Source: Chalara sp. BL73
Lineage: Eukaryota; Ascomycota; Leotiomycetes; Helotiales
Assembly (NCBI GenBank): GCA_918026815.1
Contig: CAKJVC010000025.1
Coordinates: 1 to 64,000, forward strand
Length of the DNA: 64,000 nucleotides
Reading direction: 5' to 3'
The position numbers and the translations under genes are program-made. Below the pieces are notes generated by a model that had not been told where the DNA came from, searched no databases, and saw only the letters and a program-made list of their open reading frames with translations. Of the stretch, positions 4,057 through 60,558 are shown in pieces. Within the stretch, counting starts at the first letter, position 1. Each line of letters begins with the position of its first letter.

Positions 4057-4275
4057 CATTCCCGCTTACTAAAGATTCACAGGCTGCTTGCTGCTCGACT
4101 AGCGTACCTGATGGACCGCTTAGCATAAAGGGCTAACAGCTTCGTCTTTTTAATGAATTCTACTTTGAAACTAGTGTTATATTGGCTTTACGCAGTAATA
4201 ACTCTAAAGAAACCCCCCACGATCTATCCTTATCCCAAGAACCTTAAATTGGCCTGGAGCTCAATAACTAAAACT
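4057..4275 (+). repeat. Dispersed repeat, copy A (copy B at 24,836-25,372)
   Basis: The sequence from cgcttactaaagattcacaggct through the tggcctggagctcaataacta block matches 24,836-24,883 joined to 25,174-25,372. Copy A is uninterrupted, whereas copy B carries a miniature element, so copy A shows the empty-site structure. The repeat's own nature is unknown. Confidence 0.7.
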
Positions 4276-6132: not shown

Positions 6133-6215
6133 TAACGTATTCCACAAGCGAGCGGTCCACCCAAGCGAGCGGTCCACCCCAACCAAAAAGCGCGACCTAT
6201 AATCTTTAATATACA

Positions 6216-7865
6216 ATGCAACAACCATCTTCTCTTCAATTACCTCATAAAGAGGGTAAAATATCTCTTGCTATAAATGCTATCAATCACGGCCAATTTC
6301 AAAGCGGACGAAGCGCAATAAAGACGTACGACGCGGTGCGAACGACGCTCCGACGACGACGCGCCGGAATCCGTCCGCGACGCGATTGCACGCCCAATTC
6401 GAGAAAGCTTACAGAGCTAGAAGAATCAGTTATTATTCAACATATCCTAGACCTAGATTCACGAGGGTTTTCGCCCCGATTAAGTGCCGTGGAAAATATG
6501 GCCAATAACCTTCTCCGGGCTCGCAGTGGAGGCAAGGTTGGCAAGAATTGGGCAGGGAACTTTGTCAAGCGCTCTCCAGAGCTTAAAACACGATTCAATC
6601 GCAAGTACGACTACCAGAGAGCCAAGAACGAAGATCCAAAGGTTATCCGGAAGTGGTTTAGACTCGTACAGAATACTATCGCTAAGTACGGTATCCACGA
6701 AGACGACATCTTTAATTTCGACGAAACAGGCTTTATGATGGGCATCGCTTCCACGGCAAAGGTTATTACGGCCTCAGAGCGACGCTATCGACCTAAAATG
6801 GTACAGCCAGGAAATCGCGAATGGGTTACAGTGATCCAGGGAATCAACGCGCAAGGCTGGGCCATTCCCCCTTTCGTAATCTTCGCTGGACAATACCATC
6901 TCTCAGCATGGTACAGCGAAGAAATACCAGGTGATTGGGTTCTCAGTGTAAGCGAAAACGGCTGGACGACAAATGAGCTTGGTTTTGAATGGCTTCAGCA
7001 CTTTGAGAAGCACACAAAGAGGCGTACAAAGGGCACATATCGTCTCCTTGTCATTGATGGCCACGAGAGCCACCACTCGCTTCAATTCCAGGATTTCTGC
7101 AAAGAAAACAATATTATTACACTCTGTATGCCTCCACATGCGTCTCATTTCCTTCAGCCACTTGATGTAGGCTGCTTTGCGCCTCTTAAAAAGGCGTACG
7201 GCGGCCAGATTGAGGACTTGATCCGGAGCGGCATTAACCACATTACTAAACTTGAGTTCCTACCAGCATTTCGAGCAGCATTTGAAGCCTCTTTTACTAA
7301 AAGCAATATGCAAGGAGGCTTTCGAGGTGCAGGGCTCGTTCCGTACGATCCAGAGGCTGTAATTTCAAAACTTGATATTCAATTCAGGACTCCAACACCC
7401 CCTATCGCAGAAGACGTTCCCTGGGAGCCGAAAACACCAAGCAACTCTCTTGAATTAACCTCGCAAACGGAGCTAATTAAAGTTAAAATTGCACGCCATC
7501 AAAACAGCTCTCCTACAGCCATCAATACAGCAGTTGATCAGGTCCTCAAGGGCGCGCACAAAATAGCTCATCAGCTCGCGATTCTTCAGGCGGAAAATGC
7601 TGCTCTTCACAAGGCTAACGAACTTGTAACACAGCGAAAACATCGCCAAAAAAAGCGAATTCAGCAGCGAGGGTCTCTTACAGTTCAAGACGGCCTAAAT
7701 TTAATTGATCAATCGGACATTAATACCCAAATTTTGGAGGATATGCGTCAAAGTAGTAATAGTTCACATGCGACTGTGGGACGTCAAAGGCGATGTGGAC
7801 GCTGCCGCGAGCCAGGACATCGCATTACAACATGTTCCCTAGGTCCTCAAGACATTGTAGATTAA
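6216..7865 (+). CDS. Fot1/pogo-type DDE transposase, 549 aa, intact
   Basis: Cut-and-paste transposase acting on the element's own termini in the nucleus. Order of domains: psq-like helix-turn-helix at about residues 11-55 (KEGKISLAINAI...), a CENP-B/Tc5-type second HTH at about 65-150, a DDE_1 catalytic core with D169 (FNFDETGF), D281 (VIDGHESH) and D317 (LQPLDVGCF), giving 35 residues between the last two (DD35D, as in Fot1), then a coiled-coil-like segment at about 455-490. A C-terminal CCHC zinc knuckle follows at C527, C530, H535 and C540 (CGRCREPGHRITTC). The frame is uninterrupted and the protein is identical to that of copy 2, so it may be active. The ATG at 6216 lies about 80 bp inside the left terminus, as expected for this compact family. 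Confidence 0.95.
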   Translation: MQQPSSLQLPHKEGKISLAINAINHGQFQSGRSAIKTYDAVRTTLRRRRAGIRPRRDCTPNSRKLTELEESVIIQHILDLDSRGFSPRLSAVENMANNLLRARSGGKVGKNWAGNFVKRSPELKTRFNRKYDYQRAKNEDPKVIRKWFRLVQNTIAKYGIHEDDIFNFDETGFMMGIASTAKVITASERRYRPKMVQPGNREWVTVIQGINAQGWAIPPFVIFAGQYHLSAWYSEEIPGDWVLSVSENGWTTNELGFEWLQHFEKHTKRRTKGTYRLLVIDGHESHHSLQFQDFCKENNIITLCMPPHASHFLQPLDVGCFAPLKKAYGGQIEDLIRSGINHITKLEFLPAFRAAFEASFTKSNMQGGFRGAGLVPYDPEAVISKLDIQFRTPTPPIAEDVPWEPKTPSNSLELTSQTELIKVKIARHQNSSPTAINTAVDQVLKGAHKIAHQLAILQAENAALHKANELVTQRKHRQKKRIQQRGSLTVQDGLNLIDQSDINTQILEDMRQSSNSSHATVGRQRRCGRCREPGHRITTCSLGPQDIVD

Positions 7866-7941
7866 TTATTTTTATTAGAATTAAATTCCTCAAGGCGTTG
7901 TAGAAATATATGTATTTAAAGTGGCTAGGTAGAGCTAAGGT

Positions 7942-7999
7942 GGACCGCTCGCTTGGGTGGACCGCTCGCTTGGGTGGACCGCTCGCTTGTGGAATACGT
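7942..7999 (+). repeat. Expanded right terminus of Fot copy 1 (three repeat units)
   Basis: Three tandem GGTGGACCGCTCGCTTG-type units precede GTGGAATACGT at the right end. The left end, and both ends of copies 2 and 3, have two. A one-unit slip or unequal exchange in the terminal repeat is the simplest reading. Confidence 0.85.
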
Positions 8000-22837: not shown

Positions 22838-24685
22838 ACGTATTCCACAAGCGAGCGGTCCACCCAAGCGAGCGGTCCACCTTAGCTCTACCTAGCCACT
22901 TTAAATACATATATTTCTACAACGCCTTGAGGAATTTAATTCTAATAAAAATAATTAATCTACAATGTCTTGAGGACCTAGGGAACATGTTGTAATGCGA
23001 TGTCCTGGCTCGCGGCAGCGTCCACATCGCCTTTGACGTCCCACAGTCGCATGTGAACTATTACTACTTTGACGCATATCCTCCAAAATTTGGGTATTAA
23101 TGTCCGATTGATCAATTAAATTTAGGCCGTCTTGAACTGTAAGAGACCCTCGCTGCTGAATTCGCTTTTTTTGGCGATGTTTTCGCTGTGTTACAAGTTC
23201 GTTAGCCTTGTGAAGAGCAGCATTTTCCGCCTGAAGAATCGCGAGCTGATGAGCTATTTTGTGCGCGCCCTTGAGGACCTGATCAACTGCTGTATTGATG
23301 GCTGTAGGAGAGCTGTTTTGATGGCGTGCAATTTTAACTTTAATTAGCTCCGTTTGCGAGGTTAATTCAAGAGAGTTGCTTGGTGTTTTCGGCTCCCAGG
23401 GAACGTCTTCTGCGATAGGGGGTGTTGGAGTCCTGAATTGAATATCAAGTTTTGAAATTACAGCCTCTGGATCGTACGGAACGAGCCCTGCACCTCGAAA
23501 GCCTCCTTGCATATTGCTTTTAGTAAAAGAGGCTTCAAATGCTGCTCGAAATGCTGGTAGGAACTCAAGTTTAGTAATGTGGTTAATGCCGCTCCGGATC
23601 AAGTCCTCAATCTGGCCGCCGTACGCCTTTTTAAGAGGCGCAAAGCAGCCTACATCAAGTGGCTGAAGGAAATGAGACGCATGTGGAGGCATACAGAGTG
23701 TAATAATATTGTTTTCTTTGCAGAAATCCTGGAATTGAAGCGAGTGGTGGCTCTCGTGGCCATCAATGACAAGGAGACGATATGTGCCCTTTGTACGCCT
23801 CTTTGTGTGCTTCTCAAAGTGCTGAAGCCATTCAAAACCAAGCTCATTTGTCGTCCAGCCGTTTTCGCTTACACTGAGAACCCAATCACCTGGTATTTCT
23901 TCGCTGTACCATGCTGAGAGATGGTATTGTCCAGCGAAGATTACGAAAGGGGGAATGGCCCAGCCTTGCGCGTTGATTCCCTGGATCACTGTAACCCATT
24001 CGCGATTTCCTGGCTGTACCATTTTAGGTCGATAGCGTCGCTCTGAGGCCGTAATAACCTTTGCCGTGGAAGCGATGCCCATCATAAAGCCTGTTTCGTC
24101 GAAATTAAAGATGTCGTCTTCGTGGATACCGTACTTAGCGATAGTATTCTGTACGAGTCTAAACCACTTCCGGATAACCTTTGGATCTTCGTTCTTGGCT
24201 CTCTGGTAGTCGTACTTGCGATTGAATCGTGTTTTAAGCTCTGGAGAGCGCTTGACAAAGTTCCCTGCCCAATTCTTGCCAACCTTGCCTCCACTGCGAG
24301 CCCGGAGAAGGTTATTGGCCATATTTTCCACGGCACTTAATCGGGGCGAAAACCCTCGTGAATCTAGGTCTAGGATATGTTGAATAATAACTGATTCTTC
24401 TAGCTCTGTAAGCTTTCTCGAATTGGGCGTGCAATCGCGTCGCGGACGGATTCCGGCGCGTCGTCGTCGGAGCGTCGTTCGCACCGCGTCGTACGTCTTT
24501 ATTGCGCTTCGTCCGCTTTGAAATTGGCCGTGATTGATAGCATTTATAGCAAGAGATATTTTACCCTCTTTATGAGGTAATTGAAGAGAAGATGGTTGTT
24601 GCATTGTATATTAAAGATTATAGGTCGCGCTTTTTGGTTGGGGTGGACCGCTCGCTTGGGTGGACCGCTCGCTTGTGGAATACGT
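22838..24685 (-). mobile_element. Fot1/pogo-family DNA transposon, copy 2 (reverse)
   Basis: 1848-bp element with TA duplications at 22,836-22,837 and 24,686-24,687. Two 17-bp terminal units are present at each end. It is inserted in the tandem tail of the ORF1-only LINE. Its transposase is identical in protein sequence to copy 1, so the two separated recently. Confidence 0.95.
22955..24604 (-). CDS. Fot1/pogo-type DDE transposase, 549 aa, intact
   Basis: Residue-for-residue the same as the copy 1 protein: psq HTH, CENP-B-type HTH, DD35D core (D169, D281, D317), coiled-coil-like stretch and the CCHC knuckle at 527-540. No frame damage. Two identical intact copies in opposite orientation 15 kb apart suggest current or very recent activity, and could also mediate inversion of the 8.0-22.8 kb interval. 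Confidence 0.95.
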   Translation of the reverse strand: MQQPSSLQLPHKEGKISLAINAINHGQFQSGRSAIKTYDAVRTTLRRRRAGIRPRRDCTPNSRKLTELEESVIIQHILDLDSRGFSPRLSAVENMANNLLRARSGGKVGKNWAGNFVKRSPELKTRFNRKYDYQRAKNEDPKVIRKWFRLVQNTIAKYGIHEDDIFNFDETGFMMGIASTAKVITASERRYRPKMVQPGNREWVTVIQGINAQGWAIPPFVIFAGQYHLSAWYSEEIPGDWVLSVSENGWTTNELGFEWLQHFEKHTKRRTKGTYRLLVIDGHESHHSLQFQDFCKENNIITLCMPPHASHFLQPLDVGCFAPLKKAYGGQIEDLIRSGINHITKLEFLPAFRAAFEASFTKSNMQGGFRGAGLVPYDPEAVISKLDIQFRTPTPPIAEDVPWEPKTPSNSLELTSQTELIKVKIARHQNSSPTAINTAVDQVLKGAHKIAHQLAILQAENAALHKANELVTQRKHRQKKRIQQRGSLTVQDGLNLIDQSDINTQILEDMRQSSNSSHATVGRQRRCGRCREPGHRITTCSLGPQDIVD

Positions 24686-37034: not shown

Positions 37035-37312
37035 CTAATACGAAAACGGCCTTAATCTGTTCACACCTGACGTCTCCGGCTCGCCCTCTTTTGGTACATC
37101 CACAATCGTCGGATCCAGATACCACGCCGGATCGCCCCCACCCCCAATCTGTGTCACACTCCACCCATTACCTAACCATCGCAACTTATTCTCCTCCCTA
37201 CTTTCCAGCTCAAAATCCTCCCACCTCGGTGCCCTCATCGTCTCGAGTGCATGTAGCGTACTCCCGGGCCATAACCCTGTAATTCGAACCCCCTGCCCAC
37301 TCTCGCTACGAT
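37035..37312 (-). pseudogene. Baeyer-Villiger monooxygenase, C-terminal part (cut off by the hAT element)
   Basis: The reverse frame reads NRSESGQGVRITGLWPGSTL then HALETMRAPRWEDFEL and ends NRLRPFSY plus stop. This continues the monooxygenase interrupted at 43,545: the other half ends QSWYRS and both sides carry the same 8 bases GCTACGAT (forward strand). GLWPGS-LH---T-R-PRWEDFE followed by NKLRWLGNGW is the usual C-terminus of fungal flavin monooxygenases of this group. Confidence 0.85.
37305..37312. repeat. 8-bp target site duplication, left (GCTACGAT)
   Basis: Identical to 43,545-43,552 on the other side of the hAT element. An 8-bp duplication is the hallmark of hAT insertion. Confidence 0.93.
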
Positions 37313-37455
37313 TAGACTGCGCAGAAACCCACGGGGCGGGCCGGGGCCCCCGACCCATGGGACCCCGTGGGTCGGGTCTTCGAGGCTCGCTTCCCCCGTG
37401 GGGTGGGTTGTATATTTTGACCCCAACCCGCGGGACCTCAATGGGGCCCCGATAA
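37313..37455 (+). repeat. Left terminal inverted repeat and GC-rich subterminal region
   Basis: TAGACTGCG, CAGAAA, CCCACGGGGCGGG, then repeated ACCC-GTGGG palindromes and GGGGCCCC up to about 37,452, where composition drops abruptly to AT-rich. hAT transposases bind short subterminal repeats; these palindromes are the obvious candidates. Confidence 0.8.
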
Positions 37456-37769
37456 GATTAACTAAATATAGAAACTACAGTCAAACTCCTCTACAAGAAT
37501 GTAGGGCGGACTGGCGGAATTTTAAAAATATACGAGGTATTCTAGTATCGAGATGATTCTTTCCAGTTTTGGCATTGATTTTTCTATGTGCACACAGGTT
37601 AAACAAGGCTATTTTGTATACTTGTTTTTACAAAAGTACTTGAAATGCAAAGTGGTTGATTAGTATAAAAATTAGTATAAAAATTAAACTTCAAATGTTA
37701 AATCTAAACATATTGTAATAGAGTGGAAAAAATTGTGAATTATAATAATACAACACTAATATTCTAAAA

Positions 37770-40582
37770 CTAATTTTTTTTTTGCTTTTTTGACCTGTGA
37801 ATGCCTATTGGAGTATCCGGCACAATATTACCAATACCAGGAGTCGGAAGTCGAGGCAGCTCTTGACTACTATTACTAGATAGTTCCCAGTTCGTTGTTT
37901 CAATTGACGGTTCGCGGCGATTCCTAAGTGTATTTTGAAACTGAGTAGTCGAAAGTGGCTGATTTTGATGAATTGATTGACGTAAAGATTTAGAAATCTT
38001 GTAATCCCAGCGTTCTTGAGCACGACGAGTTCGAACTTCTTCGTTTCCTTCTGGTTCTTCATCACTAATATAGTAATGATTTTCCCAAAGATCAATTTGA
38101 TCAAGTTGGACTTCAAGATCATTTTCTCGCGTTTTAATTTCCGTTTCCATATCTTCAAGTGTCATATCCTGGATATTAATAGTTGAAAATAGTAGATTTT
38201 GAAGCTCACGTGTTCGTGAATGTTCAACGAGCGAATGATAAACCAAAAGAAGCGACCGAATAGTTGTCGGTTGAAGCTGGCCACGGCGATATCCGCATAT
38301 ATCACGTGCAAAACTAAAAGCACGTTCTACTCCAACACCGGCCATCGGGATACAAAGTAAGTCTCTAGCCATTGCTGATAAGCCAGGAAGCTGTGTTTCA
38401 AGCGATTTCCAAACAAGTAGCGGTGATCGATTATCAGGCTCTAAAAAAACAACACAAAGATTAGTATAAAAATTAGTATAAAAAGTAGAATTGTAAACAT
38501 ACTCATAGCCAGCCATTCATCAATTTCAGAAGGAGAAAAGTCATCATCTTTGCGATAAGGGTTCTGAATGTCTCGAGTAAAGCGCTTGCGACTTAATGCC
38601 AATGCTAAAGGGTCGTGATTAACTTCTCGAATTTGAGAAAGTCGGTCAGCATTCGTAGACTTTTCTTTATATTCCGTATCGTATAACGACCGAAATTGAC
38701 GCTCAAATTCTTTGGCCCAATCAACTGTTTTGAAATTAAGCCAGCAGTAATCTTCTTCAAAGCATTTTAGCTTCGATTTTGGATCAAGAATTGCTCCGAT
38801 GCCATACAAACTACCAAGACTACTATATGTTTTGTTATAGTAAGTATCAAGCTTGGCTTCTGCAGCGTTAATCGCACCAATTAAATCTTTTACCCAAAGT
38901 TGAGCAACAGACTTTTTGGTTAATACTCGGCGAGATTCTTGCAAGTGTTCAAACAATTCATCGTAAATTGATAAAGCATAAGGCAATGTTATGCTTGTTG
39001 TTTTGCCGATTGTTGTTGTAAAAAAATTGAAAGGACGTAACAAATCGGCCAAATAGCCAAGTTTTTTCCATTCTAATGCAGAAAAAGAAAAAGGCTTAGC
39101 AGGATCGTATGCACTGCAAAATTGATTGATAGACTCTTTAAGACGCAATGCACGAAGAATCATATGCACTGTTGAGTCCCATCGAGTGCATACATCAATT
39201 AACAATGTAAGAACTGGATCATTCGGAGAAGATGAATCTCTGATTTGTTCTTGTTGAACTCTTTGAAATCGATGTTTCCGCTGTGCACTGGAATTAACAA
39301 GAATAGCAAGCTTTCGAATCTAATATAAGATTAGTATAAAAATTAGTATAAAAGTCACGTGTTACATACCTTTGCTAGTATATATGGAATACCACGTTTG
39401 TCACTAGCTTTGATTCTCTCAAGATCAGACAGCTCTTTTTCTGCTACCCAATTCCGAACAAATGTGTCGTTAGTAGGCCTCAATTGAACAAAGCCCAAAA
39501 GTGCTTGAAGACTAAGCTGAATCACATGCGATAAACACGGCACGTGTTGGACTTTCTTTTTTAGAATACTATTAGCTTTCAAAGCTTCTTGTAAGTATCC
39601 GTTGATTTCGAGAACCATTGTAGTATTCGAACTCGCATTATCAGTTGTAATTGAAACAACACGATCAAAAAGATTGTGCTGTTGAAAAACGTTATTGACA
39701 ACTTGAGCAAGCGCATTTCCGGAATGAACGTTTACTAAACTTTCAAATCCTATTAATTCTTGACAAAGAACCCATGACTTATCAATATAGTGAGCTATTA
39801 TACCCATAAATGATAGTCTTGTTGTACTAGACCAGCAATCAAGAGAAATTGCAATTTTGCTTCCAGGAACAACATTTGAAAGCATGTTCTGTTCAAGTTT
39901 GACTGATTGTTCCATTAGTCGATTCTTCATAGTTGTTGCAGAAGGAAGTTCGAAATTTGGATTTTGCATAACAGCTAGCTTTCTCCATTCAGGATTTTCG
40001 ACTGCGCGGAAAGAAGTACGAAGTGAAACAATAGTTGCAAGAACCTGGTCGTGAAATGCTTGCTTCGTAAAGATTGGTTGCTATTAATATTAGACATTAT
40101 ACTAATATTTATACTAATCTACTTACAGAGATAGCGTGAAACATGTCTTCCACTTTTTTCTGCCTTGTATTACTTTGGCTAGAATAAACAAAGCATTGCC
40201 GAGACGCTATATGACCAGACAAAGCTTTTGTGCCGGTATTCCGCGTATTTGGATGTGCGAGAACCTTGTTGCAGTTTTGACATATGACTTTAGGCTCTCC
40301 GGTGATCCGGTGTATTCCTTGATCGAATTGTTTCCAAGCAATAGATTTTCGATTTTGAGATTTCCAATTTAATTGCTTTACCAAATCAATTGATTGGTTT
40401 GCAACTGCTTGAACTGCCCATTGTGTACTTAACCACCATTCAACAAACTTATCGTGATATTCGAGTTCCCATCGAAAATATAGGTTTTTTGGACCAATTT
40501 GCGAAAATAGTAAATTGTCAGAAGTATTTGGCTCAAATGAGCTAAAAGGATCAGAAAAGTCTTGCGAATTGCTTGACTCCAT
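37770..40582 (-). CDS. hAT transposase, 884 aa, apparently intact
   Basis: Cut-and-paste transposase. Exons complement(40127..40582), (39370..40080), (38503..39319) and (37770..38440) join to exactly 885 codons. The three introns (46, 50 and 62 nt) have GTAAGT or GTATGT donors and TAG acceptors. Order: BED-type zinc finger at about 83-130 (W83, C101, C104, H124, C130), RNase H-fold catalytic core with D233 (ISLDCWSS), D299 (ITTDNASSN) and the C-L-SH motif (VQHVPCLSHVIQLSL), an insertion domain, and the third acidic residue near 700 in MAGVGVERAFSFARDI, within the C-terminal hAT dimerisation domain (VWKSLETQLPGLSAMARDLL). A charged 150-aa tail ends in KKQKKN. The start is the ATG at 40,582. 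No stop or frame break was found, so activity is possible. Confidence 0.9.
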
Positions 40583-40819
40583 AGCAACAAAAGTGTGCAA
40601 GTAAAAAAAAAAAGCATCAAATCGGAAAGAAAAAACAAGTATTTAAACACAAGTTAAATTACTACTTCCAAAAAATTGTACATATTAAAGGTTATAATTA
40701 AACTTCCAAAAATTAATGTAAAATATAATGATTAGTATAAAGATTAGTATAAAATTGAATATATCTGCTTAAAGTTCCTTGCTTCATTTGTTGTATATAC
40801 TTAAAAACTACATATACAT

Positions 40820-42125
40820 TTACAGCTTACGCGGCTTTTGAAAGCTGCTTTGTAAACCAAAGAATGCTTTAACGATTGTTTGACTTAAAGAATTGTCTGT
40901 CATCAAAAACAAATCATTATAAGCGGGGAAAATACGTTCGTATGATCCATCTTCCGGAATTTCCGTAGCATATACCATATCAAACGCTTCTCTATGGCCT
41001 GTCAACGAATCGGAGAAGCCGAATCCTGTGTCATTTAACTTATCGTCGGCTGGCCACCAATTTGCAGGGCCCGGCAGATCGATCCACTCTTCATTTCCGT
41101 ATGCCCATGCTGCAAGATTTTTCCAAATTGCCTTTTTCTCCTTGAGTAAAGTATCTTTCAGGAGTTTTATACGCATAGAATTTGCTATATCAGTTAGCAG
41201 ATTAGTATAAAAATTAGTAGAAATTTGTACTTCTTGTAAATGTAAGGACAGCTTGTTCTTTCCAAGTATTCCTGTCCACCAGCAGCAAGCTTTCGGATTT
41301 TGCGGAACAAAGATCGACGGCTTCGGCGCCATTTTCTTTGCCAAAACTTAAATTCAAGCTTTTTGGCATCCTGAAATTGTATTAGCGTTATACGAATCAT
41401 TATATTAATCTGAAACTTACTAAAATGGATCGTTTATGCTTGGCAATCCCGTCATTTTTCAACTCTTTAGCAGATTTGCCGACAACTGCTTTATCACCGT
41501 TTTGCTTTTCATTCAATCTCCACATATGCTCAAACTCGTATTCGTCTTCCGATTCATACTCAATATCTTCCCATGCTGGATTTCCATCATCATCAATTGC
41601 ATATAGGCCACCAATTTCTCCATAACCCAAAGCTTTTGCCACAGATTTCCAATCTTTGCCATCTCGTTCACTATACAGGTTAGTATAAAAATTAGTATAA
41701 TCAAAATTAAACGAACCGCTTTGTTCTAACTTGCAAAGCAGACTGCTCAATCATTCGCTTCTGCTCGGCAACAGATGCGAGTGCAAATTCGGCAGACTTT
41801 TTGAGTACTTTTTTTCTGTATGTAATTGCTGCTTGATCTGCGGCTTTCGCTTTTTCGATCTGATTTTGAATACTGTTGCTTTTTATAGCTTCAAGTCTTC
41901 TTCTAGCTTTAACAGTATGCACATTGGTAGAAAAACTGCCCGGAGATTTGCGCTTGCGTTTATTGGAAGAACCGATTTGCTGCGAGGAATCAAGATCCAT
42001 ATCAAATTCATGATCTGAATCATCAGAAATGACAATGATATCCTTGAAACCGATTAGTATACAGATTAATATAATATTTCAATAAAAATTACCTGAGGAG
42101 GTTGCTTTTCGAAAGGTGAAGCCAT
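40820..42125 (-). CDS. Unrecognised cargo gene of the hAT element, nuclear-looking protein
   Basis: Five exons are suggested: complement(42093..42125), (41717..42042), (41421..41670), (41231..41370) and (40820..41184), with introns of 50, 46, 50 and 46 nt that all contain the TATACTAAT-type motif. The first three exons join in frame. The protein starts MASPFEKQPPQ, then DIIVISDDSDHEF, a SUMO-interaction-like motif (hydrophobic core followed by acidic and Ser residues). Next come the basic SNKRKRKSP (likely nuclear signal), a long Lys/Ala-rich helical stretch, an acidic WEDIEYESEDEYEFEH region, and later AAWAYGNEEWIDLPGPANWW. The frame is off by one base across exon 4, so either a splice site is different or the gene is damaged. 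The donor of intron 2 (GTTCGT) is weak. No family recognised. It is divergent from the histone gene and shares its 300-bp upstream region. Confidence 0.6.
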
Positions 42126-42431
42126 ATTGGAAAGTAACGCAACCGAAAAGTAGGCGTATTTTGCAAATTTCAACTCGCAAGAACTAGAGCTTCAAAAATT
42201 AGTATAAAGATTAATATAATACACCAAAAACACGTACTGCGATAGATGTTTGACTTTGTTCAGATTTAATAAGTTGGTGCAAAAAGAATGAATGAGGGAA
42301 AAGTACGCGTTATCCTGAAAAATAAGGCAGTCGCGTTTTTATGCCTCGATTTTAAGGCATCCAACTACTTTTTTTAAACCTGACTTCTTTTAACCTTCAA
42401 TTAAATTTACCAACAACTACACCATACACAA
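42126..42431. promoter_or_regulatory. Divergent promoter region between cargo gene and histone gene
   Basis: About 300 bp separate the ATG of the middle gene (reverse) from the first 5' UTR intron of the histone gene (forward). It holds one motif pair (42,198-42,221) outside any intron. No clear TATA box position can be fixed. Divergent transcription from one region would couple the two genes. Confidence 0.4.
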
Positions 42432-42648
42432 GTATGTATTATATTTATCTTTTTTATATTCTATTTTTATATTAATCATTATACTAATTCTTTATAGTCT
42501 TCTCGTCGAAATCACAAAGCTATAATTTCAATTTCACGTGTCAATATTCACATTCACCTTCACCTTTTCTGAAAATAATTTGCGACTTTGCACAGGTACA
42601 TATTATTCTGTATTATACTAATATTTATTCTAATCTTAATAGGTTACA

Positions 42649-43199
42649 ATGGCACGTACCAAGAAAATAGCTACCAAATCTGCTCGCAAACCCTCTGCCA
42701 AAACCTCTGCCAAAACCTCTGCCAAAACCTCTGCTAAAACCTCTGCAAAAGCTGTACCAAAGAAGAAATATCGATTGAAACCTGGCAGTAAGTTGATTAA
42801 TATAATAATTAGTATAAAACTAACATTTAAACGTAGCCAAAGCACTTAGAGAAATCAAACGATACCAAAAAAGCACTGAGCTTTTAATCCCAAAAGCTCC
42901 ATTTACTCGACTAGTTAGGGGAAATAATGTATGATATTACGTCTCGACACGCATTTCGCATTCAACTTAGTGCTTTACAATGTCTCCAAGAAGCCGCAGA
43001 ATCTGCTTTGGTAGCTGAGTTCGAGCGTAAGTTATTTCATATAAATACATTATACTAATATTTATACTAATATTACTTTAAAGTCACAAATCTTGCCGCA
43101 ATCCACGCTAAGAGAGTTACTATTCAAGTAAAGGATATGCATTTGGTTCAAAGAATGAGAGAGGGAATGACGGGCTACAAGTACCCAGGCCGGTGTTAA
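42649..43199 (+). CDS. Divergent histone H3, CENP-A/CenH3-like, inside a transposon (one-base frame break)
   Basis: Exons 42,649-42,787, 42,837-43,026 and 43,084-43,199; introns of 49 and 57 nt. The N-tail begins [16 protein letters not shown] and then repeats AKTS four times. The fold follows: [22 protein letters not shown] (alpha-N), PFTRLVREI (alpha-1), [18 protein letters not shown] (alpha-2), [17 protein letters not shown] (loop 2) and a C-end [18 protein letters not shown] instead of the canonical RRIRGERA. Between the REI and LQEA motifs it is two residues longer than canonical H3, the length seen in CENP-A loop 1. One extra G in GGGG at about 42,917-42,920 breaks the frame between LVR and EI; without it the frame is open to 147 aa. 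Two 5' UTR introns (42,432-42,497, 42,596-42,642) are also suggested. It could be a damaged gene or a consensus error in a G run. Confidence 0.8.
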
Positions 43200-43409
43200 A
43201 GAATCAAACGCAGTTCATACAAAGGAAATGGGTTAAGCAATGGAGTTATTAAAGGTATACACGCTAGCGATAGGGCGCTAAGCACATAATAAAATTCACA
43301 AACCAAAATTTTAATACGTTTATGTCGCGTAGCTTTTGATTAGTAGACTTATTAGTATAACTTCTCTAACTGTACAGCAACTATTGTAATGTCACGTGTA
43401 AATGTAATG

Positions 43410-43544
43410 GGTGCTTGGCACCCCATCAAGACCCCATGGGGTGGGGTGGGTGCTTTTGATAGACCCCAACCCATGGGGTGGGACCCCGACGGGTGGGGTC
43501 AAGTAGGTGAAAACCCGCCCCGTGGGACCCCAGTTCGCAGTCTA
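43410..43544 (-). repeat. Right terminal inverted repeat and GC-rich subterminal region
   Basis: From the right tip inward (reverse strand): TAGACTGCG, AACTGGGGT, CCCACGGGGCGGG, then several ACCCCATGGGGT-type palindromes back to about 43,412. It mirrors the left subterminal region in composition but not base for base. Confidence 0.8.
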
Positions 43545-43552
43545 GCTACGAT
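43545..43552. repeat. 8-bp target site duplication, right (GCTACGAT)
   Basis: Matches 37,305-37,312 exactly. Confidence 0.93.
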
Positions 43553-47640: not shown

Positions 47641-48888
47641 ATGCCCTGAAACGAAGTGAAAGGGAAAACTATCCCCGCTGGCACGAGCCCTGCGTCCCGA
47701 AATTGTGGCGTTGGCCAGCGTAGCAGCCCTTCGCCGAGCTTCGCGCTAATTGGCTGGTTTTGATTGGTCTTAAAAATTGCTGTCACGTGTGCCATTTCTT
47801 GAGCGAGCTGGTTTTTTCGTTTTGACTTCTGCTGTCGCGGGATGATCCCAGGAGAACGCTCAAGTGTGCCGTTGGCGGGGTGCCGCCTCCGCTTTTGGCT
47901 TTTCGCTCTTCTCTGTCTTCGTATCCTGCTGATGCGTATCGCACTTTTGGGGCGGTCGCAATGTCTTCAGACCGGGTCTACTGTTCAAGTTGTGCTGAGA
48001 AGTTACCACTATGCAGCTTCGCACAATGGCCGGATGGGAAGCGGAAGAAGACCGGTATTCATTGTTTAGTGTGTATATCTGTTCTCTCTATTTTTATGCT
48101 CTTATAATGAATTTTTGGCCCTAGGATAGGATGAAAAGATACCGGTATTCTGATGCAAGAAGGTCGAATAAGGAGCCTCCAAAGAATCCTTTCCGTCTTC
48201 GGCCAGCTACTCTTCTCTCTGGACAGGCGAGTCCGTTATTGCCACCTGCGGGTGGCCCATCTATGGTGTCTACGCCAGTCTCGCCAGAACCCCTATCAAC
48301 GATAGTGCTGGACAAAAGGAGGCGCCAGCACGACGTGAATCCCCTCACGCTCTTGTCTCCAAAGATCAAGAGACAAAGGACGACGGAACATGATACGGCA
48401 CCGGAGGCTGTGAAGCTTGCAGTCTGTTTGCTGGAGGATGAATTCAAGCTTCGAGAGGCTGCCTCTGAAGCATTTCCTCCAAAGATTGCATCATCGCATA
48501 AGTCCGTGCACCCCCATGTCGATCACCCCCCCATGTCGATCACCTAAATAAACGAGTACCAACCTAACCAAAATTAATATAACTAAATAACTACTCAACT
48601 AAAATACAATCCAAAGTAGAATCAGATTCATTAGCTTCTTCTTCATCTTCTTCTCCAAGTATAGCTTCTCCTGCGGCTATTTGCGTGTTTCTGATCTTAG
48701 TAATGTCCGCAAACTTCGAATTTGAACTAGTCCTAACTTTCATTCGTTTTCTTAGCCTAGCTTTTTCTAATTAAACTTCTAAAGACTGTATTTAATAGTT
48801 ATGATTTGCTAAAACACTTTCTTGCTTTTTAAACCCTTTTGTAATTTTTCTAAACAAGAGTTTTTGTGTTGAAAAGCTGTTGTCTTAA

Positions 48889-49062
48889 TGTCACGGCACG
48901 AGCTGTGGATCTACAGATACAGAGGGCAGCGGTGGTACTATTCGAGAATCTATAGCTGAGGAAGGGAGAAGGAGCTCGAGGAGAGCAGGCTATATATACA
49001 CGAGGCGCTCTGAGAGCTCGGCTAATATAGGTCACGTGTGCTCGAGAGCACGGGACGTGACA
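48889..49062 (+). repeat. Solo LTR, 174 bp, with 5-bp duplication CTTAA
   Basis: Begins TGTCACG and ends CGTGACA. CTTAA flanks both sides (48,884-48,888, 49,063-49,067). Contains a TATA-like ggctatatatacacgag and is GC-richer than the surrounding decayed element. A perfect LTR-type insertion with the internal region lost by recombination. Confidence 0.88.
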
Positions 49063-49067
49063 CTTAA

Positions 49068-49886
49068 AGCATTTGAAACTTAGCTACTTAAGCTTTAATA
49101 TCGATCGATTTTTGAGGAGTAGTAAAAATTACTTCTTCGGAATCGATTTGCGGGCTATTATTAAAGCTTTTTGTAGCTTGTTAAGTGCTCTTCTTTGAAT
49201 TGCTATTTTCTAGGAGCAAAAAGCTTAAAAAAGGTTTAGCTATCGATTTTAGCCATAAACTAGTTGCTTTTTATTCAGCTTTGATTATTTTGGCCGATAA
49301 CGCTTTTTTTTGGGTTATTTAATAGCAAGCAAGAAAATTTTGCTTTTTAATTGAGCTAGAATTAGTCAAAAGGTTCAAATGACTAACCGCTGTACGATAG
49401 TGGCTTTTAAGTAATGAAAAGACTAACAAATCTAAAAGTTGTAAAACATATGATGTATATAAAGGTAAAAAAAGTAAGTGTATGTTGTTTTAATAACATA
49501 AATACATGAAATCAGTAGTTTCATGACTGCTATAACCGTCTAGAATAAGTAGTTTAAGCTCGAGAGTATTAGTTTAAAGAATAAACACTTTTTCTAGCTA
49601 TTTTATTGCTGTAAAGTCTAAAGTTTAAGCATTTTCGGTAGCTGTAAATTGCTAATTTTTATATTGATCGATATTCGAAGGAAACTATTGTTGCTAAACT
49701 GATTTCCTTTTAAAAATAACTAATAAAGAAAAAGCTTTGTGTTGTGGAAGAGTGAATGTTCAAGGAGCAAAAAGCTGGTTTGGTATTGAAGTCCCAAAAG
49801 GAGTTTATATACAACTGTACAAGTCATGTGCCAGCCTAACACCTGACAAAGCCACTATTTGACACCTTGACATAACCCCACTACAG
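49068..49886. other. AT-rich interior of the decayed element
   Basis: Very AT-rich, with many TTTAA/AGCTTT strings and no open frame. Part of the Fot-like element's old coding region after C-to-T type decay; the same holds for 50,242-50,960. Confidence 0.5.
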
Positions 49887-50241
49887 TGTTACGGTCCTAG
49901 CAGCCTACAACTGCTATAGATAGAAGATCTGGGTCCGAGGGTTGTTAGTCTGGGGAAGAAGTAGGTATATCACATATGAGGAGTAAGATCCCGATAACAG
50001 TATGGTGTTAAGATACTATGTTGAGTTGAGCACGAAGCTCCTATCTAAGGAAAAGCTATCTACTTATATAGATTCCTCGTGGGTTGGATCATTACCCTAG
50101 CGCATGATCCATGGATCGTGGATCATAGCCATGATCCATGATCCGTCACGTGATCCGTTATTCTTAGGGGTTCTCTGTGTAAACCAGGTCTACCGAGCCT
50201 CAGGCCCCTAAGGCATAAGCCTGTTAGCGATGCGCGTAACA
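49887..50241 (+). repeat. Probable solo LTR, 355 bp
   Basis: Begins TGTTACGG and ends CGTAACA, an inverted 7-bp terminus with TG...CA. Has a TATA-like acttatatagattcc and repeated atccatgatcc blocks. Less AT-rich than its surroundings. Flanking 5-mers (tacag / ctttg) differ, so the duplication is not confirmed. Confidence 0.6.
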
Positions 50242-51579
50242 CTTTGCCGGTAGCAGAAATACACTCGATAAATGACGTTCAAGCTCGAGAACTAGGCTGT
50301 TTTTTTTTTAAATAAAGCGTTTTTTAGAGCTTCTTACTACTAAGCTATTTGCTTTAAAGCTTTTCATTATACTTGATTCGTTTATATTCCACTGATTTTC
50401 GGGTTTAATAGCCATAATAATAAAATTAAACAGCCGTTAAAACTATGATTTAATTATAGCAGTTGTAGCATTATTAACTCTTGTAGAATCAATATTTCGA
50501 GCTTTTTTAGTCCGCAAAATAGGATTACGCCGTAAAAAGCTTTTTATTCAACGTTTCTTTGGCTTTTTATGGTCTTTTTTAATCACAAGTAGCCGGCTAG
50601 CAAATTGCCGAATTTAGCCATGAGTTAAAGGAACACTTAAAGCTTTTTAAGTCAAAACTTAAGCAAATAAGTGTTTTTCTTGTATCTTTAATAGTCTCTG
50701 TTGACTTTCTAAAGCAAAACTATGATGCTTTCTCTTTTGATTGCGATTTTGTAGTGTACTAAAAGGAACACTCTATTCTCGACTAGCTAGTCGTAAAGAC
50801 TTCTCGTTTTTAACGTCATTAAAAGCCGCAAGCAAATCTTGTTCGGTGTATTAAGGCATAATTACTTAAAGATAAAGAATTTCAAGTTTGAAGTAATTTG
50901 AATTGGAATTGATTTAATAATTAATTATATTGTTGGAATAACGGTGTGCAAATTCGCTTATTTTAGGTGATCGACATGGGGGGTGATCGACATGGGGGTG
51001 CCAGCGACCCCCTCTACTGTGCCTGGTCTGGCTTCTATCTACATCTATATTCAGATTACACCTCATCCCCGAAGAAGCGCAAAGTTCAAGAATGTCAGCA
51101 AGCAGCTCTCTATCGACCTTCCAATTCAGATCCCCTGTCTCGGACACGCAACCAATCGGCTGCAGGCGCGCGTGGCTTTGGCGTGGAACATGACCCTGAG
51201 AGTCGGTGAATTGAGTCCACTGAGAAGCGGGCGAGATGAGTTGATTGCGCCTCACTCCGCCAGCTATAGTAGGTTCCAGAGCGGTTTTCGTGACGAAGAT
51301 CTCCGAGAAAAGAAGCTTTCGCTCACGGACTAGAATCTATTGGCGCTAGTGTTTTGGAGTAACCCGTGTGGAGTATTTCCCCATCACAGCCTTACATTGA
51401 TCTCCTTGCTTCACAAAGGGTCTAAGCACTCCGCATTATCCAAAATTCCACCGGGAACACTATTCGGCCATGTAAGTTCAAGACTCGTATTTCGCCACGT
51501 TGTCCAGATACTCACGGGTTGTCTTAGCACGTTGATCCCTGAAACATACGCCTACCTGAATCGTTGCCAACTGCCCAGC

Positions 51580-58711: not shown

Positions 58712-60558
58712 CGTATTCCACAAGCGAGCGGTCCACCCAAGCGAGCGGTCCACCCCAACCAAAAAGCGCGACCTATAATCTTTAATATACAATGCAACAA
58801 CCATCTTCTCTTCAATTACCTCATAAAGAGGGTAAAATATCTCTTGCTATAAATGCTATCAATCACGGCCAATTTCAAAGCGAACGAAGCGCAATAAAGA
58901 CGTACGACGCGGTGCGAACGACGCTCCGACGACGACGCGCCGGAATCCGTCCGCGACGCGATTGCACGCCCAATTCGAGAAAGCTTACAGAGCTAGAAGA
59001 ATCAGTTATTATTCAACATATCCTAGACCTAGATTCACGAGGGTTTTCGCCCCGATTAAGTGCCGTGGAAAATATGGCCAATAACCTTCTCCGGGCTCGC
59101 AGTGGAGGCAAGGTTGGCAAGAATTGGGCAGGGAACTTTGTCAAGCGCTCTCCAGAGCTTAAAACACGATTCAATCGCAAGTACGACTACCAGAGAGCCA
59201 AGAACGAAGATCCAAAGGTTATCCGGAAGTGGTTTAGACTCGTACAGAATACTATCGCTAAGTACGGTATCCACGAAGACGACATCTTTAATTTCGACGA
59301 AACAGGCTTTATGATGGGCATCGCTTCCACGGCAAAGGTTATTACGGCCTCAGAGCGACGCTATCGACCTAAAATGGTACAGCCAGGAAATCGCGAATGG
59401 GTTACAGTGATCCAGGGAATCAACGCGCAAGGCTGGGCCATTCCCCCTTTCGTAATCTTCGCTGGACAATACCATCTCTCAGCATGGTACAGCGAAGAAA
59501 TACCAGGTGATTGGGTTCTCAGTGTAAGCGAAAACGGCTGGACTACAAATGAGCATGGTTTTGAATGGCTTCAGCACTTTGAGAAGCACACAAAGAGGCG
59601 TACAAAGGGCACATATCGTCTCCTTGTCATTGATGGCCACGAGAGCCACAACTCGCTTCAATTCCAGGATTTCTGCAAAGAAAACAATATTATTACACTC
59701 TGTATGCCTCCACATGCGTCTCATTTCCTTCAGCCACTTGATGTAGGCTGCTTTGCGCCTCTTAAAAAGGCGTACGGCGGCCAGATTGAGGACCTGATCC
59801 GGAGCGGCATTAACCACATTACTAAACTTGAGTTCCTGCCAGCATTTCGAGCAGCATTTGAAGCCTCTTTTACTAAAAGCAATATGCAAGGAGGCTTTCG
59901 AGGTGCAGGGCTCGTTCCGTACGATCCAGAGGCTGTCATTTCAAAACTTGATATTCAATTAAGGACTCCAACACCCCCGATCGCAGAAGACGTTCCCTGG
60001 GAGCCGAAAACACCAAGCAACTCTCTTGAATTAACCTCGCAAACGGAGCTAATTAAAGTTAAAATTGCACGCCATCAAAATAGCTCTCCTACAGCCATCA
60101 ATACAGCAGTTGATCAGGTCCTCAAGGGCGCGCACAAAATAGCTCATCAGCTCGCGATTCTTCAGGCGGAAAATGCTGCTCTTCGCAAGGCTAACGAACT
60201 TGTAACACAGCGAAAACATCGCCAAAAAAGCGAATTCAGCAGCGAGGGTCTCTTACAGTTCAGGATGGCCTAAATTTAATTGATCAATCGGACATTAATA
60301 CGCAAATTTTGGAGGATATGCGTCAAAGTAGTAATGGTTCAAATGCGACAGCGGGACGTCAAAGGCGATGTGGACGCTGCCGCGAGCCAGGACATCGCAT
60401 TACAACATGTTCCCTAGGTTCTCGAGACATTGCAGATTAATTATTTTTAATTAGAATTAAATATCTTAAGGCGTTGTAGAAATATCTGTATTTGAAGTGG
60501 CTAGGTATAGCTAAGGTGGACCGCTCGCTTGGGTGGACCGCTCGCTTGTGGAATACGT
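58712..60558 (+). mobile_element. Fot1/pogo-family DNA transposon, copy 3 (frameshifted)
   Basis: 1847 bp between TA duplications (58,710-58,711, 60,559-60,560) with two terminal units at each end. A few base changes relative to copies 1 and 2. The termini are intact, so it could still be moved in trans. Confidence 0.93.
58792..60273 (+). pseudogene. Fot1/pogo transposase of copy 3, C-terminus lost by frameshift
   Basis: Same protein as copies 1 and 2 up to residue about 478, with substitutions including G-to-E near residue 31, NEHGF for NELGF, and HESHN for HESHH beside the second catalytic Asp. A run of seven A (copies 1 and 2) is six A here (about 60,224-60,229), which shifts the frame. 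The protein ends KSEFSSEGLLQFRMA at 493 aa, losing the CCHC knuckle, which is still readable downstream in another frame. The DD35D core is complete. Confidence 0.9.

What the first reader, a model, noticed from the sequence alone, without database searches (positions are those of the whole stretch)
37313..43544. A hAT transposon that carries a histone H3 variant gene
Seen: 9-bp tips (TAGACTGCG) plus a shared 13-bp inner block, a perfect 8-bp duplication (GCTACGAT) in a broken monooxygenase gene, an 885-codon four-exon hAT transposase, and on the opposite strand a histone-fold H3 gene. Known: hAT elements normally encode only a transposase (sometimes one accessory ORF) and make 8-bp duplications. 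I know of no described hAT with a histone cargo. Inference: the element could use its own H3 variant to mark its chromatin, to resist silencing or to bias its target or segregation behaviour; or the gene was simply captured.
Basis: partly seen in the sequence, partly recalled or inferred. Interest (0 to 1): 0.95.

Follow-up and report, generated by a model that had tools for sequence, protein, structure and literature searches.

The report
Jumping gene with its own histone
A fungal jumping gene carries, besides its transposase and an unknown protein, its own unusual DNA-packaging protein (a histone H3 variant), and one short DNA signature recurs in all of its non-coding parts; similar elements are already known from other fungi, but this one hints that the histone is an old working part rather than a stray passenger.

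Summary
37313-43544 is a real hAT transposon: 25 of 25 two-ended copies in the same genome have perfect 8-bp target duplications, and the histone gene sits in the same place in all 25, including copies about 82% identical. The claim of novelty is wrong: Manning et al. 2013 described a 5.6-kb hAT in Pyrenophora tritici-repentis with the same three genes, and Dhillon et al. 2019 other H3-carrying hATs. What is new here: (1) the histone (H3L) is not a recent capture of host H3; it groups with proteins of Bisporella, Tricladium, Pseudogymnoascus, Clarireedia and Talaromyces, apart from H3 and CenH3; (2) transposase and ORF2 show purifying selection; (3) a 22-bp doublet (TATACTAATNTTTATACTAATC) lies in every intron and spacer, in either orientation, not in exons. 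Older copies are RIP-mutated. Best mechanism (inferred): an element-encoded binder, probably ORF2, recognises the doublets and helps place H3L nucleosomes on the element, resisting silencing, comparable to VANDAL21/VANC anti-silencing in Arabidopsis. No step of this mechanism was tested.

The parts
37313..43544 (.). whole hAT element, 6232 bp
   Evidence: 25 genomic matches; 25 of 25 two-ended copies with perfect 8-bp duplications
37305..37312 (.). left target-site duplication GCTACGAT
   Evidence: sequence
43545..43552 (.). right target-site duplication GCTACGAT
   Evidence: sequence
37313..37321 (+). left terminal inverted repeat TAGACTGCG, followed by inner block CCCACGGGGCGGG at 37328-37340 and further G+C-rich subterminal repeats
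43536..43544 (-). right terminal inverted repeat (TAGACTGCG on the - strand), with the same inner block nearby
37770..40582 (-). hAT transposase, 884 aa; exons 40582-40127, 40080-39370, 39319-38503, 38440-37770 (the last includes the stop)
   Evidence: unbroken frame; PF05699 E=1e-9; 4 non-synonymous and 11 synonymous differences between subfamilies
40820..42125 (-). ORF2 (central ORF), 364 aa in copy L014; exons 42125-42093, 42042-41735, 41670-41421, 41370-41231, 41184-40820; frame-shifted in the window copy; one GC-AG intron inferred
   Evidence: homologs in Tricladium and Chlorociboria
42649..43199 (+). H3L, histone H3 variant, 147 aa in intact copies; exons 42649-42787, 42837-43026, 43084-43199; window copy has one extra G in the run at 42918-42921
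   Evidence: PF00125 E=8.7e-30
42126..42648 (.). divergent spacer between ORF2 and H3L with three doublet motifs, one of them inside an apparent 5'-UTR intron of H3L (no transcript data)
37658..37679 (-). doublet motif copy 1 (3' of transposase)
38459..38480 (-). doublet motif copy 2 (transposase intron 3)
39329..39350 (-). doublet motif copy 3 (transposase intron 2)
40098..40119 (+). doublet motif copy 4 (transposase intron 1, antisense to the gene)
40730..40763 (-). doublet motif copy 5 (spacer between transposase and ORF2; two overlapping matches)
41200..41221 (-). doublet motif copy 6 (ORF2 intron 4)
41389..41410 (+). doublet motif copy 7 (ORF2 intron 3, antisense to the gene, 3 mismatches)
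41678..41699 (-). doublet motif copy 8 (ORF2 intron 2)
42052..42073 (-). doublet motif copy 9 (ORF2 intron 1)
42197..42218 (-). doublet motif copy 10 (spacer ORF2-H3L)
42468..42489 (+). doublet motif copy 11 (spacer ORF2-H3L, 3 mismatches)
42614..42635 (+). doublet motif copy 12 (apparent 5'-UTR intron of H3L)
42795..42816 (-). doublet motif copy 13 (H3L intron 1, antisense to the gene)
43051..43072 (+). doublet motif copy 14 (H3L intron 2)
43338..43359 (-). doublet motif copy 15 (3' of H3L, 3 mismatches)

Best explanation
It is a recently active, multi-copy, probably autonomous hAT transposon with three genes (transposase, ORF2, H3L), of the type first described from Pyrenophora tritici-repentis. 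SHOWN: boundaries, copy number, H3L in all 25 two-ended copies, RIP-like damage of older copies, purifying selection on transposase and ORF2 between two un-RIPed subfamilies, grouping of H3L apart from H3 and CenH3, and a 22-bp doublet in every intron and spacer. INFERRED: H3L is a working part of the element. H3L pairs with host H4 and is placed on the element's own copies by an element-encoded protein, most likely ORF2, that binds the dispersed doublets. Its tail lacks the usual K27 context and has T instead of R before K9, so nucleosomes containing it should be poor substrates for K9/K27 methylation. The element thereby keeps its copies accessible and delays silencing, although it does not stop RIP in the long run.
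For: 25 of 25 two-ended copies with perfect 8-bp TSDs, all with H3L. H3L and five relatives are separated by a 100/99 branch from host H3, host CenH3, Cnp1 and other H3 rows. Tricladium encodes homologs of both H3L (62%) and ORF2 (41%). Non-synonymous/synonymous differences between L014 and the majority of 13 other young copies: transposase 4/11 (p=0.0019), ORF2 1/6 (p=0.0068), H3L 0/1; in older copies, counting only changes that RIP cannot make, transposase 3/13 (p=0.001). Motif: 16 of 16 window matches at up to 3 mismatches are in non-coding element DNA, each of the 13 non-coding segments holds at least one, none in 300 base shuffles of those segments. 108 of 108 exact genomic matches lie in element copies, so it is not a general intron feature of this fungus. 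Non-RIP changes hit 2 of 342 motif sites against 29 of 1367 other non-coding sites, one-sided p=0.036. H3L keeps H113, R116, D123, L126, R129 and differs at R8, K27, R63, D106 (roles recalled). Precedent: VANC21, a TE-encoded protein, binds a short motif in introns, intergenic and terminal non-coding regions of its own TE and causes loss of DNA methylation (PMC5735166, passages).
Against: No binding, expression or chromatin data. H3L alone has too few non-RIP changes for a selection test; ORF2 is not significant in the older-copy test (1/2, p=0.33). 11 of 14 young copies carry a frameshift in H3L, so H3L is not needed in cis, if those shifts are real rather than assembly errors. Older copies are heavily RIP-mutated, so protection is incomplete. 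H3L tails vary among the relatives, and the Pseudogymnoascus one has an SARKST stretch, so loss of K9/K27 context is not a rule of the group. The motif was defined from this very sequence, so the shuffle controls are partly circular, and any 22-mer of a repeat family would be confined to its copies; the telling points are its recurrence in all 13 non-coding segments and both orientations. ORF2 has no recognisable domain, and the fold prediction (two sequences) is poor, mean pLDDT 44, with only a helical stretch at about 50-110 confident. 7 of 10 introns carry the doublet in sense orientation, as expected if it also serves as branch point. Whether H3L and ORF2 are linked in Tricladium is unknown.
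Confidence: 0.4

Rival explanations
1. H3L is a passenger: a histone-like gene carried along by the transposon, amplified with it, without a role for the element (transduplication in the sense of the two earlier papers).
For: Gene capture by hAT elements is the explanation given for Pyrenophora and Pseudocercospora. 11 of 14 young copies have a broken H3L frame, yet spread. No selection signal for H3L alone.
Against: H3L is in all 25 two-ended copies and free of frameshifts in 10 of 11 older ones, although most of those have RIP stops or a lost start codon; relatives with the histone fold at 55-90% identity exist in other fungi; its introns carry the element's motif. The homopolymer shifts conflict with each other across copies (39019 and 40554 show all four combinations) and look like recurrent slippage or consensus errors.
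Confidence: 0.22
2. The doublet is splicing-related: a doubled branch-point box spread from intron to intron when the element gained its introns, and H3L/ORF2 serve expression or transposition rather than anti-silencing.
For: TACTAAT resembles the yeast branch-point box (recalled); 7 of 10 introns have it in sense orientation, its half-sites about 13-36 nt before the acceptor.
Against: 3 of 10 introns carry it antisense and have another candidate branch point; five copies lie outside any intron modelled here; 0 of 108 exact genomic matches are outside the element, so it is not a general intron feature of this fungus.
Confidence: 0.25
3. H3L acts in transposition itself: as part of the chromatin at the element ends, in choice of target, or in marking existing copies so that new ones avoid them.
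For: H3L and transposase gene are together in all 25 two-ended copies. The TSDs show only a weak base preference (T at position 2, hence A at position 7, in 24 of 48 strand-symmetrised sites), so target choice could be by chromatin.
Against: No direct evidence; other hAT elements move without a histone (recalled). Young copies with a shifted H3L frame have spread, which would need H3L in trans.
Confidence: 0.13

Closest known systems
H3L-hAT of Pyrenophora tritici-repentis (Manning et al. 2013, PMC3538342)
   Same: hAT transposase, central ORF of unknown function and an H3-like gene between terminal inverted repeats; about 5.6 kb; near-identical copies; H3L neither H3 nor CenH3. [quoted passage not shown]
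   Different: Sequences could not be compared here. No such fusion form is among the 25 matches; older copies here are strongly RIP-mutated; a dispersed motif is not mentioned in the passages and the part of section 20 that I read.
H3-carrying hAT of Pseudocercospora fijiensis and relatives (Dhillon et al. 2019, PMC6710886)
   Same: hAT with 8-bp duplications, H3-like sequence, RIP.
   Different: There about 9.5 kb, one or two H3-like copies that look like an intron-less retrocopy, all inactivated, dimerisation domain not identified; here 6.2 kb, intron-bearing H3L, unbroken copies, dimerisation domain present.
VANDAL21 with VANC21 anti-silencing protein (Arabidopsis; PMC5735166, PMC10398659)
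   Same: A TE with a non-transposase gene and a private short motif in its introns and spacers. The motif YAGTATTAY agrees at seven of nine positions (by eye) with TAGTATAAA, the other strand of the half-site here.
   Different: VANDAL21 is a Mutator-like plant element without a histone gene (recalled); binding and demethylation are shown there and not tested here; ORF2 shows no Pfam match.

Membership tests
hAT superfamily | 8-bp target-site duplication | tested here: met
   25 of 25 two-ended copies
hAT superfamily | short terminal inverted repeats | tested here: met
   TAGACTGCG at both ends; the 25 two-ended copies were picked by these ends, so they are no separate test of them
hAT superfamily | transposase with hAT C-terminal dimerisation domain | tested here: met
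   PF05699 E=1e-9, 38.5 bits over cut-off 21.4; RNase-H model PF14372 19 bits, below its cut-off 27
hAT superfamily | DDE catalytic residues | tested here: inconclusive
   candidates LDCW, TDNAS and VERAFS read by eye in the protein against a motif recalled from memory
H3L-hAT of the Pyrenophora type | transposase, central ORF and H3-like gene in one hAT element | tested here: met
   against PMC3538342 section 20, part 1
H3L-hAT of the Pyrenophora type | H3L is neither canonical H3 nor CenH3 | tested here: met
   split 100/99 in a 13-row tree
H3L-hAT of the Pyrenophora type | sequence homology of transposase, central ORF and H3L with the Pyrenophora element | not testable with these tools
   Pyrenophora sequence not held; no Pyrenophora name among the 120 listed of 7647 hits (names are cut short there)
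Mycosphaerellaceae H3-hAT | intron-less H3 retrocopy, dimerisation domain not identified | tested here: not met
   H3L has introns; PF05699 present
CenH3 (CENP-A) | groups with fungal CenH3 | tested here: not met
   host CenH3 and Cnp1 fall on the other side of a 100/99 branch, although the loop-1 stretch is also longer (12 residues against 10 in host H3 and 13-16 in the two CenH3s)
VANDAL/VANC anti-silencing system | private motif repeated in non-coding TE DNA | tested here: met
VANDAL/VANC anti-silencing system | TE protein binds the motif and removes silent marks | not testable with these tools
   needs binding and chromatin assays
VANDAL/VANC anti-silencing system | accessory protein is a VANC homolog | tested here: inconclusive
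   ORF2 and two homologs have no Pfam match up to E=1; no direct comparison with a VANC protein was made

The most novel reading that the evidence does not exclude
The element is a self-marking transposon: it encodes its own histone H3 variant, a dedicated sequence-specific deposition factor (ORF2), and its own address label, the 22-bp doublet written into every intron and spacer, so that only its own copies are wrapped in H3L nucleosomes that host silencing enzymes read poorly. This lineage would be old and spread over several classes of ascomycetes, and the published 'capture of a housekeeping H3 gene' in Pyrenophora would be a member of it.
Probability: 0.27. Interest if true: 0.93.

Novelty: new member of a known kind. 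Interest (0 to 1): 0.62.

Why it matters
Transposon-borne histones were reported as captures of a housekeeping gene. Here the histone belongs to a distinct H3 group, is present in all 25 two-ended copies together with the transposase and an ORF2 that shows purifying selection, in an element whose non-coding DNA is sown with one private motif. If H3L is deposited on the element, it would be a transposon that brings its own nucleosomes, and a ready tool for asking what an H3 variant with altered K9/K27 context does to silencing and RIP.

Tried and rejected
Rejected: H3L as a separate later insertion (same place in all 25 two-ended copies; the inserts in L030 and L031 are other elements inside H3L, one with 206-bp direct end repeats, one with inverted ends). 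Rejected: H3L as CenH3, my own first idea from the [10 protein letters not shown] stretch and the longer loop 1; the tree puts it apart. Rejected: recent copy of host H3 (intron positions differ as read by eye).

Led nowhere: a transversion-based selection test has no power for H3L or ORF2 (H3L 2 of 297 codon-position-1/2 sites, 0 of 148 third positions; ORF2 2 of 730 and 1 of 364) and shows depletion only for the transposase (2 of 1768 against 6 of 884, p=0.02; against non-coding sites p=0.0003) (there the ORF2 exon 4 was one base short, so its later codon positions are off; corrected). In older copies, changes that RIP cannot make gave 3 non-synonymous/13 synonymous for the transposase (p=0.001), 1/2 for ORF2 (p=0.33) and 0/1 for H3L (p=0.39). 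ORF2 in viral contigs: 2 stretches matched a pattern, none confirmed. ORF2 or its homologs in solved structures, NCBIfam and fold search: nothing significant. Phrase search for transposon-encoded histones: 0 papers. The DNA around the relatives in other fungi could not be examined: the genome collections held are prokaryotic, and no metagenome scan was allowed. The host species was not identified.
Full report
What is there. The window holds a 6232-bp element with 9-bp inverted tips TAGACTGCG, a shared inner block CCCACGGGGCGGG, and a perfect 8-bp duplication GCTACGAT. Taking it out with one duplication leaves one open stretch of 331 codons across the site in a gene that reads like a flavin monooxygenase. 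In the same genome (58.66 Mb, 199 contigs) the element matches 25 places, 25 of 38 candidates having been scored; 24 of 25 include the H3 gene. The 25th, on C53, is cut at element position 4220; its left duplication ATTATATT is also the right duplication of the copy that runs into the end of contig C73, so the two are probably one insertion. A search with the right end of the element gave 36 matches, several of them fragments. Of the 31 element loci held, 25 have both ends (picked by the end sequences) and 6 have one; 25 of 25 have identical 8-bp flanks, with 24 different sequences among them. L018, L026 and the one-ended L029 share one; L011 and the one-ended L015 share another. The duplications show T at position 2, and by symmetry A at position 7, in 24 of 48 strand-symmetrised sites.

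Genes. Transposase: 884 aa, four exons on the - strand, unbroken in L001 (the window copy), L009 and L014 among the 14 young two-ended copies; hAT dimerisation domain E=1e-9. ORF2: 364 aa in L014, five exons on the - strand, one intron with a GC donor inferred from phase; no indel among the 25 copies falls at that junction. It has two relatives among 1424 candidates, in Chlorociboria aeruginascens (44%) and Tricladium varicosporioides (41%), and no Pfam domain. Its N-terminal IIVISDDSD looks like a SUMO-interacting motif (recalled pattern; absent from the two homologs in the alignment). H3L: 147 aa, three coding exons on the + strand; in unbroken copies a full histone fold, PF00125 E=8.7e-30.

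State of the copies. Young copies (L001-L014) differ mostly by single-base changes of homopolymer runs, apart from L014, which is a separate subfamily, and a cluster of changes in L013. The H3L frame is unbroken in L007, L010 and L014, and broken in 11 of 14 by one extra G at 42918-42921 and/or one A fewer near 42867. Sites 39019 and 40554 show all four combinations across copies (L001, L002, L005, L007), so these shifts either recurred or are consensus errors of near-identical repeats; I cannot tell which. One young copy (L014) has all three frames unbroken. Of 11 older two-ended copies (L016-L022, L025-L028), 10 have H3L without a frameshift (two of them lack one 12-bp unit of the tail, in frame) and L018 has indels; but 10 of the 11 read isoleucine in place of the start methionine, and six of the 10 without frameshift have internal stops. 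L016 keeps a start codon and an unbroken frame. In the 10 older copies counted (L026 left out as a sister of L018) C-to-T against T-to-C changes are 235:14, 230:19, 227:18, 335:12, 358:16, 470:9, 701:13, 1026:9, 1057:8 and 1068:6, mostly in CA and CT contexts: RIP or a RIP-like process. So the family has been hit before, and the young copies have not, which points to recent movement.

Selection. Between L014 and the majority of the other 13 young copies: transposase 4 non-synonymous and 11 synonymous (p=0.0019), ORF2 1 and 6 (p=0.0068), H3L 0 and 1. H3L alone has no power in any test made, and ORF2 is not significant in the older copies (1 and 2).

What the histone is. Against solved structures the 60 shown of 176 matches are all named H3; the best align from the ARTK start to the end of the fold, with two extra residues in loop 1 of H3L. 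Against 5.8 billion proteins (7647 hits among 7993 scored candidates; the best 120 listed) the closest is a Bisporella sp. PMI_857 protein (90%). Of the proteins that I then read (14 of 120), those of Tricladium (62%), Pseudogymnoascus (59%), Clarireedia (65% over 75% of the length) and Talaromyces marneffei (55%) share its special residues. The Tricladium protein is listed on three contigs. In a 13-row tree of the fold these six form one side of a branch with support 100/99; host H3, other H3s, host CenH3 and S. pombe Cnp1 are on the other. The six have EFE(L/M)T and LV where the other rows have LFEDT and LA (P0042, with a duplicated stretch, aside). I picked the relatives by eye, so the tree shows that the six are one group, not how many other H3Ls exist, and whether the other five sit in transposons is unknown. 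H3L keeps H113, R116, D123, L126 and R129, which serve H3-H3' contact (recalled), and R49, K64, R69, R72 and R83, but has P for R63, L for D106, T for R8 and no K27 context; the alignment of tails is uncertain. Host H3 and host CenH3 genes are elsewhere (C159, C66).

The motif. A 22-bp doublet TATACTAATNTTTATACTAATC, which I derived from this sequence, is found 16 times in the window at up to 3 mismatches, against 0 in shuffles, 16 of 16 inside the element. All lie in non-coding DNA, and each of the 13 non-coding segments between exons and ends has at least one; shuffling those segments 300 times gave none. In three of ten introns (transposase 1, ORF2 3, H3L 1) it is antisense, and five copies are outside the introns modelled, so it is not just a branch point. 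Genome-wide there are 108 exact matches, and 108 exact matches lie in the 29 element loci counted. At one mismatch there are 243 in the genome, of which 228 are in those loci; 15 were not placed. No match lay in the flanks held, and none in the fragments L030 and L031 (up to one mismatch). Confinement to the element would hold for any 22-mer of a repeat family; here it says only that the doublet is no general intron feature of the host. Motif sites have fewer non-RIP changes than other non-coding sites, 2 of 342 against 29 of 1367, one-sided p=0.036; the two parts of this test gave p=0.054 and 0.050.

Known relatives. Manning et al. 2013 (PMC3538342; passages and part 1 of section 20 read) describe a 5.6-kb hAT with transposase, central ORF and H3L in Pyrenophora tritici-repentis, 10 long and 16 short copies, with ESTs for H3L. 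Dhillon et al. 2019 (PMC6710886; abstract, passages and section 9 read) describe H3-carrying hATs of the Mycosphaerellaceae, intron-less and RIP-inactivated, and treat the Pyrenophora case as recent and independent. A later Pyrenophora paper mentions the expanded histone family in all its isolates (PMC5913888, passages). So the kind is known. In the listings (15 of 45 listed), 44, 45, 69 and 70 I saw, by title and start of abstract, no further hAT with a histone; the other papers listed there and all supplements were not read. In what I read nothing corresponds to the dispersed motif or to an H3L group shared across classes.

Mechanism. A histone variant that travels with the transposase, and a motif in every stretch that is not coding, would fit one cause. 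[quoted passage not shown] I therefore think most likely that an element protein, ORF2 first, binds the doublets and places H3L there. This is inference; its weak points are given under evidence against. The direction of descent, from an old fungal H3 paralog into the transposon or the other way, is open.

Noticed in passing
window 6145-7989, 22848-24675, 58721-60548: Three copies (98-100% identical) of a 1.83-1.85-kb transposon with inverted ends made of TAACGTATTCCA and a doubled or tripled 17-mer; the middle one holds a 549-aa frame that reads like a pogo/Tc1-type transposase (by eye).
   Followed up: partly
window 48511-50998: A 2.49-kb stretch with inverted ends made of a doubled 17-mer (CCCCCATGTCGATCACC) and no frame of 150 aa or more: a possible non-autonomous or decayed element.
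   Followed up: no
L030 (C62) and L031 (C114): In two decayed copies other elements are inserted within about 15 bases of each other at the end of H3L exon 2: an 8.3-kb insert with 206-bp direct end repeats and a 1.86-kb insert with inverted ends.
   Followed up: partly
L001-L014: Near-identical copies differ by conflicting homopolymer indels, as expected of a long-read assembly whose repeats were not polished; gene calls in repeats of this genome need care.
   Followed up: partly
window 42687-42761: The H3L tail contains a 12-bp tandem repeat (about 6 units) coding for KTSA-like units; two older copies (L027, L028) are 12 bp shorter there.
   Followed up: no
window 41671-41742: ORF2 intron 2 seems to use a GC-AG splice pair.
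   Followed up: no
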